DNA from: Ariolimax columbianus
Taxonomy: Eukaryota; Mollusca; Gastropoda; Stylommatophora; Arionidae
NCBI GenBank assembly: GCA_036924085.1
Contig: JAVGWX010000003.1
Span: 130,197,023-130,261,022, forward strand
Reading direction: 5' to 3'
Length of the DNA stretch: 64,000 nucleotides
Shown piece by piece: positions 5,805 through 50,735 of this stretch. The notes beneath the pieces are model-generated. The model had not been told where the DNA came from and made no database searches. It saw nothing but the letters and a program-made list of their open reading frames with translations. Positions within the stretch are counted from its first letter, which is position 1, and each line of letters begins with the position of its first letter. Made by a program: the position numbers and the translations under genes.

Positions 5805-6713
5805 CTAGCTTTTTAGTGCTGTAACTACGGCCAGGGCATTTGTAAGCAGGACTATATGGCTTTCATTACTCTTTCTTGTCACCATTTCTTCTACTGCAGC
5901 CCTCAGTGCCTCAGATTCCGCTGTGAAATTGATTGAGTATTTTCCAGTTGCCACTGACCGTGTTACTTGTCTACCATTTGGTAGGCACATGAATACCCCT
6001 GCCCCTCCGTTCTGTGTTGTGTTTGTTACAGAACCGTCGGTGTATGCGTGGGTCCAGTCTATGCTTTGGTAGTTTTTCGTTTGGTAGCTCAGGGTTGTAT
6101 CTCTTCTTTCTTTTTCAGTCTGCCTGTTTTTTTTCCAATATCTGGTATGTTTTCTACCACCTCTGGAAATATGCTGCCTCCAGGTAGGTTTTCGTACAGT
6201 AGTGATGGTCTTTGGTGTTGTTAATGCGTTCATAGGGTCTTCGCTCATCTTTGCTTTGGTTATTTCTGCAAAGTTTCTCCGCTTTAGTTTCCCATTTCCC
6301 AAATTGTTTAGTCTCTGGTGCACTGGATGGTCAGTCAGTCTTCTGAGTTTCTCTGCCTGCTGCTGGGCTCTGCAGTCTCTTCTGTCGGTCATGGATTGCA
6401 GTTTTGTAATCTTTTCAAGTTCTACAATTGGCGTTGACTTCATGGCTCCTGTTATAACTCTCATGGCTTGGTTTTGGAGTTCGCTAATTTTATCAAAGAT
6501 CGCATTTGCTGCTGTTGTCCATGCCGCAATGCCATACTCTAGAACTGGTCTCACTCTTCCATTGTACAGTTTCTTTAGTATACTTTCGTCTGCTCTCCAG
6601 CTTGTGCCAGCAAGTTTCCTCATGATTGCCATTCTTTCTCTGGCTCTCATTCGGTTTCTCTCGATCTGACTTTTCCATGTCATGCGCCGATCAAATGTGA
6701 CTCCCAGGTCCAC
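5805..6713 (-). pseudogene. Jockey-B reverse transcriptase C-terminus and first half of RNase H
   Basis: About 300 codons are open, from DLGVTFDRRMTWKSQIERN (just after the RT palm) through the thumb region (YGIAAWTTAANAIF) to RNase H. In RNase H the first Asp (YTDGS) and the Glu (ESEALRAA) are present. The third acidic position reads LLTNALAVVTAL, whereas the copy at 41219-42196 has LLTDALAVVTAL. This copy has therefore lost a metal-binding aspartate. It ends in a stop after LKS and the frame then shifts. Confidence 0.9.
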
Positions 6714-7788
6714 ATAGCCAGATCGTCTGCAAACATTGAGCTATGGTCTCTTCTTTGTATATTCTCTGTTTTTTTATTTATATACACCAGGAAGAGAGTG
6801 GGTGACAGTACTCCCCTTTGGGGTACTCCCTGCTCAAGTGTCACCTTTTTGCTCATCTACCTTTGTACTTGAACTCTGGCTGTTCTGTTTTTGAGGTAGT
6901 GGCTGATCCATTTATACATTTTCCCATAAACTTCACTTCTTCTTAGCTTGACTCTAAGTCTCTCTTTCCAGACTTTGTCAAATGCGTTTTATAGGTCCAC
7001 TCAAACCACTACTGTGTGTTTTTGCTCCTGGTAGGCATCTTCTATTTCCTGGGCTATGAGGATGACCTGATCCTCAGTGGATCTGTGCTGTCTAAAGCCT
7101 GTTTGCTGTGGAATTAGTTTGTGTTTTTCTTCCAGATGCCACATCAGTCTGGTGTTTATCATACGTTCCATCAGTTTGCCTACGCAGCTCAGTAGGCTGA
7201 TAGGCCTGTATCCATTTGGATCAGTTTTGTCTTTTCCTTTCTTTGGTACTGGTACAAGTACTGCGTCTTTCCATGCCTGGGGTACAATATCCCTTTTCCA
7301 CTTTGGTTCAGGACTGATAGTAGTTTCCTCTTTGCTGTTTGGCCCAGCTCCATCAGCATTTTGTTTGTTGTCCCGTCTTTTCCGGGAGATTTCCTTTTCT
7401 TTAACGTTCTCATGGCCTCTTCCATTTCATTCATTGTTAATTTTGCCATCATATGCTCTTCTGGTGCCAAATTCATGTTGTCGGGCCCCATAATGTTCAA
7501 CATAATGTTTCTAGTGAGCATGTTGTCACCCTGCTTGATTGTAATTTGATTGTTTGATGGAGTTTCGGCATTCTAGGCTCTGACGAGCTTCCATAGTTTG
7601 TTCCCTTATTTGTCTAAATTGAGGCTTTCTGTTTGGTTTTTCCAGCCTTCTCTTGCTGTTTGGTTTAGAGTGTATTTGTATTTCGCCGTGGTGGCTTTGA
7701 GGGCGATATTTGCCTCCGTAGATTGTTCTCGCTCTGCCATGTTCCTAGCATTTATGACTGCGTCTTCCGCTTTCTGCAAATCATCATT
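6710..7788 (-). pseudogene. Jockey-B reverse transcriptase core
   Basis: Several frames must be followed on the minus strand. Seen in order are MEEAMRTLKKRKSPGKDGTT, GYRPISLLSCVGKLMERMI, PQQTGFRQHRSTEDQV, NAFDKVWKERL, PQRGVLSPTLF and MFADDLAMW. The FADD active site at about 6709-6735 is intact, but a stop lies before NAFDKVW (about 6985-6990) and more frame breaks occur near 7520 and 7575. A deletion of about 75 bp relative to the 1-612 copy lies near 7500. The domain order and motifs are those of the Jockey clade. Confidence 0.9.
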
Positions 7789-31639: not shown

Positions 31640-32660
31640 ATTAATTTAACAACAAAACATACGAAAAGCAACACATGCTTTTAAAATAACAGGAGGACGA
31701 CACAGGTGTGCTTTCACTATTGTTGCTAAACATTTATATGGACATAATAACACAGAGACCATCCGAGTAGAAACATCGAATGTGGAATGCAACATACGAA
31801 ATGAAGAGCCCAACTCATTACGTGAACTACTCCTCGCTGACAAACAAAGCTTTTACATTCAGGGACGAAGATAAACTGCAAAATCATATGATACACTTGA
31901 CACAGTCCGTGATAGATATGCTATGAAGATTAGTACATTAAAAACGTAAACTATGATGGTTAGCAGAAAACTAGGTCCACTAATTACACATGTAAACAAT
32001 ATCAAACTTAGGCAGGTCCAAGACTTCGAATGTCTAGTCAGTATGTTTTTACAAAAAGGTAAAAGGCTTGACAGAGACATTGAAACTAGATGTTAGAAAG
32101 TTTCTGTTCTGACATTTCAACTGTCACCATTGCTAAATTACCAGAACACCAGTTTGACAACGTAGTAATCGGTCAAACAAGGTCCTTTTCAAGGCATAGG
32201 AACTAAAAATGACATGGTGTGGAGGGTGTCTAACAAGAAAGCCATTTATATATCTAGGAGGGATAACAAGAAAGCCATTTGTATCACTAGGAGAGATAAC
32301 AAGAAAGCTATTTGTATCACTAGGAGGTATAACAAGAAAGCCATTTGTATCACTAGGCGGGATGACAAGAAAGCCATTTGTATCACTAGGAGGGATAACA
32401 AGAAAGCTATTTGTATCACTAGGAGGGATAACAAGAAAGCCATTTGTATCACTAGGAGGGATAATAAGAAAAATGATTACATTCGAAATATAATGAGAGC
32501 TACCTCTTGTGCTCAGCACATTTCAAAACACCAAATACGGTGATTTGATCAACTCAGGAGAATACAACCTGATCAACACACTTGGCCCAAGACAAGCAAC
32601 TTCCAGGAAGCTGGAAGGCATACGTGGGTGCAACAGACAAAGTAAAACACATTTAATATG
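31640..32660 (+). pseudogene. RTE-like reverse transcriptase with an in-frame 33-bp array
   Basis: The order of motifs is RNEEPNSLRELLLADKQ (in place of 'LLYADD'), RDRYAMKISTLKT-TMMVSRK, LGPLITHVNNIKLRQVQDFE, CLVSMFLQKGKRLDRDIETR and LTFQLSPLLNYQNT. This is the palm-to-thumb stretch of an RTE-like RT ('NNIKLRQVQEFKYLGS'). Then NKKAIYISRRDNKKAIC enters the array. After it, ITRRDNKKNDYIRN, QHISKHQIR and the remnant FDQLRRIQPDQH correspond to the normal C-terminal sequence ('TRRDRIRN..IRN...QIRWFGHL'). The protein is thus continuous on both sides of the array, and the array units are copies of its own segment. Stops elsewhere make it a pseudogene. Confidence 0.75.
32226..32475. repeat. Minisatellite, 33-bp unit, 8 copies, inside an RTE-like ORF
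   Basis: Repeat starts at 32231, 32264, 32297, 32330, 32363, 32396, 32429 and 32462 are exactly 33 bp apart. The unit (TAACAAGAAAGCCATTTGTA, TCACTAGGAGGGA) reads KAICITRRDNK in the LINE frame and is open in other frames on both strands. Copies differ by single bases. Confidence 0.97.
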
Positions 32661-32839
32661 GACAGGAGTATAGATACCTTGGCTGTGATTAGTTCATTAG
32701 CCTAGTCCCAGATGTTATGTTAAAGTTGAAGGCTAACCTGGAACAAATGATGCATGTTCTGAATAGCTGCATCACCGCTGCCAAAATATCCAAACCAGCA
32801 GCAGGAAATCGCATCAGTGTCGGTACACATTAAGTTATT

Positions 32840-34620
32840 GCAACTAGAAAAATGCTCAAGATCAGAAGTGGGCTAGATAGGATCACACTCTGCTTACTAT
32901 ACATGAAGATGAGACACAGGCTAAAAGAAGATTATGAGCAGTATAGCTTACAACGTCTAATTAACGCAGATGAGACAAGAAGGGGTATCATAAACTGCAG
33001 GAAGACACTACAACAAAGCAAGAGTTTCTTGACAGCCCTAAAGAAGGAAGATGGTACAACATTGACTTATAGAGTTAAGTGAGACAAATGCATAAAGTTC
33101 TACACGGGTCTTTTCGCATCAAAAACAGTAGTGACCAAAATACTACTCAATTTAGATATAGCTAGCGACGAGGTCCTACACGCGACTCAACACCTAAAGT
33201 CAGACAAATCGCCTGATCTGAACGGATAACTGTAGAAAGAGGTTGGCTTAAATACAGTTGCATGTCAACTGGCTTTATTTTTCAACATCTGCCTTTATAA
33301 ACGACAAATTCCAGATCAGTAGAAGTGCTCCAAGGCAGTTTTGATTCACAAAAAGGATGACGGAAATTCTGGTGAGCTACCGCCCAATCTGCTTGATATC
33401 AACTAAACTGTTCACAAATATCATTATCTGCAAATTAGAAAGGCAACTCGCTAAGAACCATTCGCATGTACAGGCTGGTTTCAAGAAGAGCTTCTCAACC
33501 AATGGTTACCTTCATACAACCAACCAGTTAATGGAAAGATCGTGAGAAGTCAGTGTGCACCTTTGCATTATGTTTGTAAACTTCGAAAAGGCCGTTGACA
33601 TCGTGGAAATAATTGCAGTGATAAATGCTTTGTGGAACCAAGGTATCGACAAAAAGTACGCACAGCTTATAGAGAAGATAAATGAGGCTGAACTGCTATC
33701 ACTCTTTTCCACAAGCTACTTTTCATTCCTACACACCGAGGACAACGACAAGCATATACTATCACTCCAAGACTGTTCACAGCTGCCCTTGGATACGTTT
33801 TTAGAACTCTACTGATAGTATCGAGGTGTAAACATAGATGGCGAGATGCTCTCACATCTACGCTTATAGAAGCCATTGTGATCTACAGCCACAGCACTGC
33901 AGAAGTCGAACAAAGCCTAGCGGGCTGAATAAAGCAGACAAAGCGGTTGGCCCGAACTTAAATAGAAAGAAGACAATTTCTACTGAACACTGTCTTCCCT
34001 ACTGTGGAACTGCAATTGGAAAGTTGGGCCATCGAAAATGTCAATGCACATGTCCACCTAGGCCAGGAAATCAACAACAACCACAACGTTGATAAGGAGA
34101 TATCACGTAGGACAGCAGCGGATTGGCTCAGCTTTAACTGCAATAAACCGATACTCTAGCGGATGACGAACGTCAAGGCCAGGGCTCACACTCTCAATAG
34201 CATGACTATTCCAGCAATGGTAAAAGGATGGGAGGTTCGGAGTCTCCGCAAATCAGACGCAGAAAAGCTATAATATACTGAAAGAGCAATTGAGCGAAGA
34301 ATCGTAAATATCTTCTTAAGAGACCCCATCCGAAATGCCGACATCCGTGACCAAACAGAGCTCCACATGTCGTCGGTTCTGTGTCTGCAAGTGCAGATGG
34401 GTCGACCATGTGGTTCGCATGACTGAGGATAGATGGACGAGGAGGGTATCTTTCTGGTGGCCATACAACTACAACCGCATGCCGCATGCCGAGGAGATGT
34501 AAAAATGACCTACACATCGGCTTTGAACTATCATGGTACTCCAAGGCTAAGGAGAGGCACATATCCCATCAATATTGGCTAGCGAACATGAGGCAGCCTT
34601 GGCTGTTTGATTACCAAGGT
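32840..34620 (+). pseudogene. RTE-like LINE, linker through reverse transcriptase, heavily frameshifted
   Basis: It reads in order LKSDKSPDLNG (finger), SKAVLIHKKDDGNSGEL, RPICLISTKLFTNIIICKLE, FVNFEKAVDIVEI (degraded first catalytic block), VHLGQEINNNHNVDKEISRR, TAADWLSFNCNKPIL, MTNVKARAHTLNSMTIPAMV, KGWEVRSLRKSDAEKL, ERAIERRIVNIFLRDPIRNA, then a damaged CRWVDHVVRMT-like end. This matches the RTE-type RT known from C. elegans F52C9.6-like transposon proteins. The YxDD box is not visible. Stops occur throughout. Confidence 0.85.
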
Positions 34621-35439
34621 TTCAACTATTCAAGTAAGTAAGACGGCTATCCCCTAGCAGGAACTGCCCTCAACGATAACGTGTTGCCAGTTCCTTTCCT
34701 TGCTGCCGTGTGATCTCTATCTGGTAGTCAGTTACCCGTTTACGGCTAGATAGAATGAAGCTTACCTTGACAGAGGATTGAACTCAGACCTTTGACGATA
34801 CAGCGAAATCCAATATCTTTAATTGCTCAGGCATTAAAAATATGGGTTTGTATGTCCACCTTAAAAACAAAGCCAATTGATTACAACTCGATCAGAAAAA
34901 ACACACAGAGAAGATACACATAATTACCTACAATTTCGTACATTAGGAGAAATTTGCCTTCATATCGTAAACATAACAATGTTATACAAAAAGAATTGAA
35001 GTATTTAGATGTTAACTTAAGGATATAGAAAGCTATCGGTTTAAGTGGTCAGTGAAAATTCAACGAAAATCGATACACAATAATATATAAATGTTATTCA
35101 TCATTCTCAACTTGCATATCTAGGCAGTTTTATTGTTCAACTGGGCAGTTAAAAAAACAACAAAAACATTTACAAATATATATTTATAATCCAAAGTACA
35201 GTAGACCGTTAATGTCAATGATTTACTGAATATAGACCAGGTATCACAACATTCTTTCTATCCTATCTCAAAACTCATTTTCTAATTTAAGTCGAGGTGT
35301 GATCATTTTTGTTAAGATAACGTTACACAAGGACGTGTTCGACGGTTTCAAGCTTTTCCTGGTTGTACCAAACTCCCACCCGACATATGGAGAAATCGTC
35401 TAGTCACGGTCTAACTTCGTCTTCTCTAAACATTCATTT
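34621..35439. other. No recognisable feature
   Basis: AT-rich sequence. Nothing beyond low-complexity A/T runs. Confidence 0.5.
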
Positions 35440-41218: not shown

Positions 41219-42196
41219 TCTTCTTCTTCTTCTGCGTACACAGTCAGACAGTAACCATTATTTTTTCGAAAAAAGCGGCGGTCATCCTGAGACTCTCGCC
41301 ACTACCATAGAGCTTGTCTTGCAGTTCCACTGGCAGTGGCCACATCTGCTCTCTCTGATCCCCGTATGTCGGGCAGTTCTGCAGCAGATGTTCAGTGGTC
41401 ATTTTACCAGTACCGCACGGGCATTCGTCGGTACACCCTATCTTCAATTTGTTGAATAGGTGGTACCTCAGTCTATTGTGGCCAGTGCGAAGTCTGAAGA
41501 CAACGACCTGCTCTCTTCGGTTCAACTGGTAATAGGCATCGTTTTTGGTGTAACCAGTATGTTCGGTTTCCCATTTGGTAATGTACCTGGCTTTGATAAG
41601 CCGTTTTGACTCTTCGTACGTCATACTGGTATCTGTTTGTGGTAGCCTTGCACCTTCTTTTGCCAGTCTGTCTGCCTCCTCGTTGCCTTGGATGTTGCAG
41701 TGTGACGGAACCCACTGTACCACTACCCTTTTTGGTGCGGACAGCTGGCACAGTTTGCAGAGTGCTGCTCTTAAGTCATTAAGCTCAGTGTTTTTCTGGC
41801 TTTTTAGCGCTGTGACTACGGCGAGAGCATCTGTCAGCAAGACTATGTGGCTCTCATTTTCACTGTGTGTTGCCATTTCTTCCACTGCCGCCCTCAGTGC
41901 CTCTGCCTCCGCTCTGAAATTGCTTGTGTACTTACCAGTAGCGAATGACAGTGTTATTTTTCTGCCATTTGGTAGGTTCAGGAATGCTCCTGCCCCTCCG
42001 TTCTGTGTAGTGTTTGTTACAGAACCGTCGGTGTATGCATGGGTCCAGTCCATGCTTGGGTAGCTTTTCGTTATGAAGCTTAGGGTAGTGTCTCTCCTTT
42101 CTTTTTCGGTCTGGCAGTTTTTGTTTGCAATACCTGGTATATTTTCTACCACCTCTGGAAATATATCCTGCCTCCAAGTAGGTTTTCGTACAGTAG
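41219..42196 (-). mobile_element. Jockey-B LINE, 5'-truncated copy inside a minisatellite
   Basis: A 978-bp insertion flanked by an exact 12-bp duplication (41207-41218 and 42197-42208). The 3' end is a (GAA)n tail, seen as TTC repeats at 41219-41233, with the stop codon 8 bases before it. It covers the region from just before RNase H to the C-terminus. It is young: its protein differs from the copy at 55898-56316 at only about five of some 130 aligned residues. Confidence 0.95.
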
Positions 42197-42335
42197 TGGG
42201 TTCTTTCTGAATCCTGGGATATTCCGAGGTATCTTGGCAAAAAGGGTTCTTTCTGAATCCTGGGATATTCCGAGGTATCTTGGCAAAAAAGGTTCTTTCT
42301 GGATCCTGGGATAAAATCCCGAAGTAACTTGGCAA
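41244..42335 (-). pseudogene. Jockey-B RNase H and C-terminal domain, open, fused by read-through to array-encoded peptide
   Basis: The 363-codon frame begins in the minisatellite (FAKIPRNIPGFRKNPFCQDT), which supplies about the first 46 residues by chance. The LINE part starts at TTVRKPTWRQDIF. RNase H has YTDGS, AEAEALRAA, LLTDALAVVTAL and VPSHCNIQGNEEADRLA, so all catalytic acidic residues and the His are present. Then come NRREQVVVFRLRTGHNRLRY and CPCGTGKMTTEHLLQNC, ending IMVTV. It is the longest open frame in the window and the only one with an intact catalytic domain. No reverse transcriptase is attached, so it is not autonomous. Confidence 0.9.
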
Positions 42336-42475
42336 AAGGGGTTCTTCCTGAATCCTGGGATAAAATCCCGAAGTGACTTGGCAAAAGGGGTTCTTCCTGA
42401 ATACTGGGATAAAATCCCGAAGTGACTTGGCAAAAGGGGTTCTTCCTGAATCCTAGAAAATATCTCAAAGTCTCT
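42197..42475. repeat. Minisatellite, ~47-49-bp unit, right part
   Basis: Two subtypes: a shorter one with GATATTCCGAGGTATCTTGG and a longer one with GATAAAATCCCGAAGTGACT. They are grouped, not interleaved. 42480-42959 beyond is featureless. Confidence 0.92.
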
Positions 42476-48659: not shown

Positions 48660-49030
48660 CATCAAGACATGTTAGTAGTTAGTTTTCTTTCCACTTGTGC
48701 CGTTTAGCGTCCTGAGAAGCTTAAGTCGTCTATCCTGCGCCAAGTGCGTTTCGTCGATCAACGTGAGCCCTTGTCGCTGCACAATCACTCTAATGTCCTC
48801 TATCCATCTACCTCGCGGCCGCCCCTTCCCTGTAGCCAGATCTACCAGCATTGTAAGCCATCAGTGGAAGATGATGAGGGTGCATTCTCATGAGATGAAC
48901 AAACCAAGTTATTTTCTGCCTGGAAATATATTCGACACAAGACGTAGTACTGGTCTAAATGTCTTGAAATTAGCACAGGCGGTCATGTGCATTGTCTTGA
49001 AATCTTACAGGACTTGTAGAACAAATTAAG
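48660..49030 (-). pseudogene. RTE-like C-terminal fragment inserted in the hAT relic
   Basis: The minus strand reads TWFVHLMRMHPHHLPLMAYN, then, in another frame, ATGKGRPRGRWIEDIRVIVQ, RQGLTLIDETHLAQDRRLKL. This is the 'W.GHV.RM......GRPR.RW.D.I........A.DR' end of a non-LTR RT protein. It sits between the BED half and the central hAT segment, suggesting an insertion into the transposon. Confidence 0.7.
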
Positions 49031-50479: not shown

Positions 50480-50735
50480 AGGCGGCGTGGGCTAGTGGTT
50501 AAGTGACACGGCTCACAATCAGAAAGTGCTGGGTTCAATCCCCATCACAGCACCGGCCGTTACCCCAGGGAAGCAAACCCTTAGAAAATGCAGGAGGAAG
50601 AAGACCCTTACATAAAATGCATGCTGAATTCAGATGCACTAGTCCGACAGGCGCAAAATAAAAAAACCACAGTGCAACGCACACCGCTTTCGGGAGTACA
50701 TAAATAAGGCGAACGAACAAACAAATAATTTTTTT
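50480..50735 (+). repeat. tRNA-derived SINE
   Basis: GGCGGCGTGGGCTAGTGGTT (A-box region) and GGGTTCAATCCCC (B box) have the spacing of an RNA polymerase III internal promoter. A tRNA-unrelated body follows, with TAAATAAGGCGAACGAACAA, ending in a T-rich tail (50728-50742). The tRNA-like head cannot form a clean cloverleaf, so it is not a tRNA gene. No target-site duplication was found. Confidence 0.8.

What the first reader, a model, noticed from the sequence alone, without database searches (positions are those of the whole stretch)
32226..32475. 33-bp array inside an RTE-like ORF, in frame on both sides
The protein before the array (NKKAIYIS) and after it (TRRDNKKNDYIRN) are the two halves of one conserved RTE C-terminal motif ('RKA.NKTRRDRIRN..IRN'), and each of eight units (KAICITRRDNK) repeats that motif's middle. 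Because 33 is a multiple of three, the reading frame is preserved. This is a third, independent case of a minisatellite born within a LINE coding region.
Basis: partly seen in the sequence, partly recalled or inferred. Interest (0 to 1): 0.75.

Follow-up and report, generated by a model that had tools for sequence, protein, structure and literature searches.

The report
Minisatellite grown inside dead LINE copy
A 33-base stretch of a decayed mobile element's gene has been copied about seven times in a row, and other copies of what looks like the same element elsewhere in this genome carry their own arrays, with other repeat lengths, from the same spot.

Summary
Window 32231-32471 is a 33-bp tandem array (7.3 copies, 92% matches), and the reading frame continues on both sides. 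Both flanks belong to one decayed, RTE-like LINE copy, family 'A'. A second, different RTE-like copy starts near 32736. Eight of 19 fetched relatives align through the motif without an array, so the array is an addition to the element.

Seven further loci carry arrays of the same motif, with units of 21, 24, 34, 36, 31/36 (12.1 kb), 32/39 and 52 bp. Both edges were read at three of the seven, and each sits in the LINE motif. Differing units argue for several separate births, probably by slippage between short direct repeats; support for that step is mixed.

Nothing suggests selection on the frame: stops bound the open stretch, 4 of 8 distinct substitutions are silent (P=0.13), and four sister loci have units that break the frame. 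TE-born minisatellites are a known kind. Whether this motif is a true hotspot is untested, because the control searches did not complete.

The parts
31671..32230 (+). C-terminal part of RTE-like LINE copy A, upstream of the array, decayed
   Evidence: Matches a dispersed family: 41 rows, 40 scored of 910 candidates, relatives 68-77% identical, best starts near query base 29-42 of window:31640-32230; stops in the frame
32231..32471 (+). 33-bp tandem array, 7 full units plus an edge piece
   Evidence: TRF; unit by unit translation
32231..32240 (+). left short direct repeat TAACAAGAAA
   Evidence: Pairs with TAATAAGAAA at a spacing of 33 in the one-unit form of the site; may also be no more than the array's partial unit
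32462..32471 (+). right short direct repeat TAATAAGAAA
32472..32600 (+). C-terminal part of the same LINE copy A, downstream of the array
   Evidence: 75% identical to L026 over 104 bp; matches L063, L061, L055 and others
32736..34640 (+). second RTE-like LINE copy B, a different family, directly downstream; not part of the array
   Evidence: Relatives begin at window 32735 or later (39 rows besides the window itself); 51 rows for 33220-34640; no tblastx match between A and B
48690..48941 (-). short 3' piece of a family-A copy, beginning downstream of the motif
   Evidence: 64% over 254 bp to the C-terminal stretch of L026; sequence read

Best explanation
The array is a minisatellite born inside the C-terminal coding stretch of a LINE copy, and it most likely has no function. 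Shown: the flanks are the two halves of one LINE motif, aligned relatives lack the array, and the unit is the motif's own middle. Inferred: two near-identical short repeats in the motif (here TAACAAGAAA and TAATAAGAAA, 33 bp apart) let the polymerase slip, or let sister strands exchange unequally, which gave a two-unit duplication; further slippage or exchange grew it to about seven units. Other copies of the family duplicated the same stretch in other registers, giving arrays of 21 to 52 bp. The frame is kept here because the spacing happens to be a multiple of three.
For: Flanks homologous on both sides to L026 and to array-less copies. No array of period 20-60 at the motif in 19 fetched relatives, of which 8 align through it. 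Sister arrays read at both edges at C8, C14 and C2. In the one-unit forms of the window and of C2 the longest short repeat around the core has exactly the array's period, 33 and 24. Flanking short repeats are the accepted start of minisatellites: Haber and Louis, as told in passages of PMC6947457 and PMC3389668.
Against: In the one-unit forms of C8 and C14 the 36-bp spacing is not among the short repeats printed. Repeats at array edges can be mere partial units. The test of period against short-repeat spacing is mixed: P 0.019 on a hand-read motif, 0.02 to 0.94 on five single copies, 0.66 on a flawed automatic consensus. No two-unit intermediate was found.
Confidence: 0.85

Rival explanations
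1. One ancestral duplication arose in a master element; copies inherited two units and these were later expanded and trimmed at several loci. The arrays would then be one birth and not many.
For: Window 33, C8 36 and C14 31/36 could all be derived from one 36-bp unit by small deletions (inference). Separate births were inferred from unit length and edges only; no tree was built.
Against: Units of 24, 39 and 52 bp use other registers of the motif. Units are alike within the window array (92%) but only 71% identical between loci. None of 19 relatives carries a two-unit form of 20-60 bp.
Confidence: 0.2
2. The array codes for a kept protein repeat: the frame is preserved by selection on the LINE protein or on a new peptide.
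For: Frame open through the array and in register with both flanks; 4 of 8 distinct substitutions silent against 26% expected.
Against: P=0.13; stops on both sides; sister arrays of 31, 32, 34 and 52 bp break the frame; only 4 of 8 loci have units all divisible by three.
Confidence: 0.03
3. A satellite from elsewhere was inserted or transposed into the LINE copy.
For: This genome is rich in minisatellites.
Against: The unit is the LINE motif itself. The genome search with the array found itself and three other places at 71% identity, two in the C14 array and one at C8, both arrays within the same motif (its count is a lower bound).
Confidence: 0.02

Closest known systems
Minisatellites born from transposable elements in the human genome (Alu, LTR12 and others; PMC3389668, passages read)
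   Same: Tandem arrays inside copies of a mobile element; some element regions hold more arrays than others; 300 such arrays flanked by direct repeats of 5-20 bp.
   Different: There Alu and LTR12 are the elements named for hotspots in the passages; here the coding end of an RTE-like LINE in another animal, with several unit lengths from one motif.
Haber and Louis model of minisatellite origin (as told in PMC6947457, passages read)
   Same: A motif flanked by 5-10 bp repeats is duplicated by slippage or unequal crossing-over, then expanded; fits the 10-base repeats at the window and C2 edges.
Satellite DNA from retrotransposon-derived tandem repeats in a plant (PMC7004042; listing and start of abstract seen)
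   Same: Retrotransposon-borne tandem repeats as the source of long arrays; compare the 12.1-kb C14 array.
   Different: Plant material and long satellites studied with nanopore reads; here mostly short arrays in a LINE.

Membership tests
TE-derived minisatellite | Sequence of one element copy on both sides of the array | tested here: met
   Both flanks match L026 and array-less relatives
TE-derived minisatellite | Unit is a piece of the element itself | tested here: met
   One-unit form aligns with array-less copies
TE-derived minisatellite | Related copies without the array exist | tested here: met
   8 of 19 fetched relatives align through the motif with no array of period 20-60
Minisatellite by the Haber and Louis route | Short direct repeats whose spacing equals the period | tested here: inconclusive
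   Top-ranked at the window and C2, not printed at C8 and C14; P values mixed
Hotspot segment of an element | More arrays at this segment than at other equally common segments | not tested
   Control pattern searches did not complete (first sent)
RTE clade LINE | Reverse transcriptase of the RTE clade | tested here: inconclusive
   Pieces of families A and B gave no Pfam RVT_1 match and a family-A piece found no homologue; copies are decayed and short
RTE clade LINE | C-terminal motif of the type TRRD.IRN | tested here: inconclusive
Coding repeat under selection | Excess of silent changes within units | tested here: not met
   4 of 8 distinct changes silent, 26% expected, P=0.13

The most novel reading that the evidence does not exclude
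One short C-terminal coding motif of a LINE family is a built-in cradle of minisatellites: short repeats inside it allow duplication in several registers (such as 24, 36, 39 and 52 bp), so the spread of the LINE seeds the genome with sites from which new arrays, up to 12 kb, arise independently again and again.
Probability: 0.35. Interest if true: 0.6.

Novelty: new member of a known kind. Interest (0 to 1): 0.4.

Why it matters
If the births are separate, this LINE family is a natural replicate experiment: hundreds of similar start sequences, a few of which became arrays, where period and junction tell which short repeats slipped. The start of a minisatellite is usually hidden by later change, and here it could be tested directly. 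For this window alone it is a modest, ordinary piece of genome decay.

Tried and rejected
Rejected: that the flank match is spurious. Rejected: that the array and the reverse-transcriptase-like stretch downstream are one element; family B starts near 32736 and A and B show no tblastx match. Rejected as unsupported: selection on the frame.

Led nowhere: protein searches with family-A pieces (no candidate; two candidates, none scored); Pfam matches of the array's open frame (nine unrelated families, all below their curated cut-offs); Rfam (0 at gathering scores); phage records (no match).

Rows dropped before counting the array loci, because the unit does not continue as the motif: six arrays (C1:26615367, C1:42298134, C4:130631528, C5:108867599, C9:85467738, C12:87270654; the C5 one is ambiguous) and three (C4:108335084, C10:29686353, C19:2107286). 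One search found 474 places and listed only the first, up to part of C14, so loci may be missing.

Tests against the slippage reading: one search gave P 0.66 on an automatic consensus with one spurious column; one search gave P 0.02 to 0.94 on five single copies (0.019 on the hand-read motif); a binomial of 0.03 used offsets chosen by eye after the fact.

Full report
The array. TRF places a 33-bp array at 32231-32471, 7.3 copies, 92% matches, no indels. It is thus seven units plus an edge piece, not eight. The open stretch is 32169-32543, after two stops and before another; upstream QLSPLL and downstream AQHISKHQIR are in the same frame. In L052, an array-less relative, the stretches matching the two flanks are also in one frame.

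What surrounds it. The window lies in an unnamed assembly of 2.29 Gb. A LINE reading frame elsewhere in the window has 93 protein hits; those that carry a species name are molluscs (Littorina, Gigantopelta, Elysia, Nucella, Mytilus) and one nemertean (Lineus), so the host is probably a mollusc; that is inference. The 591 bases 31640-32230 match a dispersed family: 41 rows, 40 scored of 910 candidates, relatives 68-77% identical. Nineteen relatives were fetched (L048-L066). The C-terminal motif could be aligned in eight: L052, L054, L055, L057, L060, L061, L063, L065. In L058 it is split by about 1.1 kb, and in L055 about 340 bp lie just downstream of it. In the other ten it was not recovered whole. 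The motif reads roughly CEMKCLRKVIGVTRRDQMRNDDIRN, then PCAEYISRQK (read by hand). TRF on all 19 found no array of period 20-60 at the motif; L061 has a 10-bp unit repeated 2.8 times within it. From about 32736 a different RTE-like family, B, begins: the 39 other rows start at window 32735 or later, and 51 rows cover 33220-34640. A and B show no tblastx match. The RTE label comes from recalled motifs; the short pieces tested gave no reverse-transcriptase match in Pfam.

Other arrays of the same motif. (1) C8, L026: 36-bp unit, 4.8 copies, flanks homologous to the window's, 65% over 239 bp upstream and 75% over 104 bp downstream. (2) C14:14051617-14063737: 12,121 bp; 181 spacings of 36 and 144 of 31 bp, counted over two fetches that overlap by 101 bases; left edge TGAAATGAAATGTCTAAGAAAAGTTATTGG, right edge GATGACATGAGAAATGAGGACATCAG and, further on, AGAACTACCACTTGTGCTG. 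(3) C2:148400434-148403153: 24-bp unit; left edge 87% over 47 bp and right edge 68% over 179 bp to the hand-read motif. (4) C6:22437277 onward: 34-bp unit; the left edge resembles the motif by eye, the right edge was not reached. (5) C11:62601842-62602842: 21-bp unit, flanks not read. (6) C14:16731482 onward: 32- and 39-bp units, flanks not read. (7) C5:114359742-114360078: an exact 25-base core seven times at 52-bp steps, flanks not read; the other 15 of the 22 places in that search stand alone in the list. With the window this makes eight loci, four of them read at both edges. Nine more arrays caught by the patterns were set aside because their units do not continue as the motif. The reversed control patterns gave 0.

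How it may have arisen. At C14 the unit junction GATATAAGAACAG looks by eye like the right flank (GACATGAGAA) joined to the left flank (AAGAAAAG). Anchors in the array-less copies L055 and L057 lie 36, 39 and 52 bp apart, and in four others they are shifted by 0 to 6 bases; arrays of 36, 39 and 52 bp exist. This fits slippage or unequal exchange between short repeats, the Haber and Louis model as told in passages of PMC6947457 and PMC3389668. The test is mixed and edge repeats may be partial units, so the mechanism is likely but not shown.

Frame and selection. Nine substitutions, eight distinct, in the seven units: four of the eight are silent against 26% expected, P=0.13, and no other frame gives a lower P. 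Four of eight loci have units all divisible by three (33, 36, 24, 21). The C8 array and the part of the C14 array tested have stops in all three forward frames; the C2 array is open in one frame because its unit holds no stop there. Nothing points to a maintained protein.

Background and novelty. The window holds 14 arrays of period at least 20 with at least 5 copies, 0.22 per kb, counted from rows picked by hand out. A family of perhaps a thousand copies would hold many arrays by chance, so eight at one motif need not exceed the background. The controls, tandem searches of two other conserved segments, did not complete. A 28-base segment further downstream has 15 exact places, but without its tandem search this is no control. 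Literature searches of the held library listed papers on TE-born minisatellites and satellites; in the titles and abstract starts shown I saw none on repeated array birth at an RTE coding motif. I read passages of two papers only. I file it as a new member of a known kind, with repeated birth at one motif as the novel case.

Noticed in passing
window 42198-42454 (-): A 49-bp array (5.4 copies) inside a LINE-like reading frame 41244-42452 on the minus strand; the stretch after it (TTVRKPTWRQ) is shared with the frame at 5805-6740, which lacks the array.
   Followed up: partly
G000 C14:14051617-14063737 (L025, L067): A 12.1-kb array grown from the same LINE motif, mixing 36- and 31-bp units, with a 909-base exact match at offset 1758 inside it, so a recent larger duplication.
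   Followed up: partly
window 1-64000: Very high density of minisatellites: 14 arrays of period at least 20 with at least 5 copies.
   Followed up: no
L061 2125-2152: In an otherwise array-less family-A copy, a 10-bp unit (AGACGAGATA) is repeated 2.8 times within the same motif, perhaps a young duplication.
   Followed up: no
L026 4535-4768; window 50483-50661 and 58475-58286: A dispersed repeat, SINE-like by eye, lies in the C8 copy just upstream of its array and occurs twice in the window, 79-90% identical.
   Followed up: no
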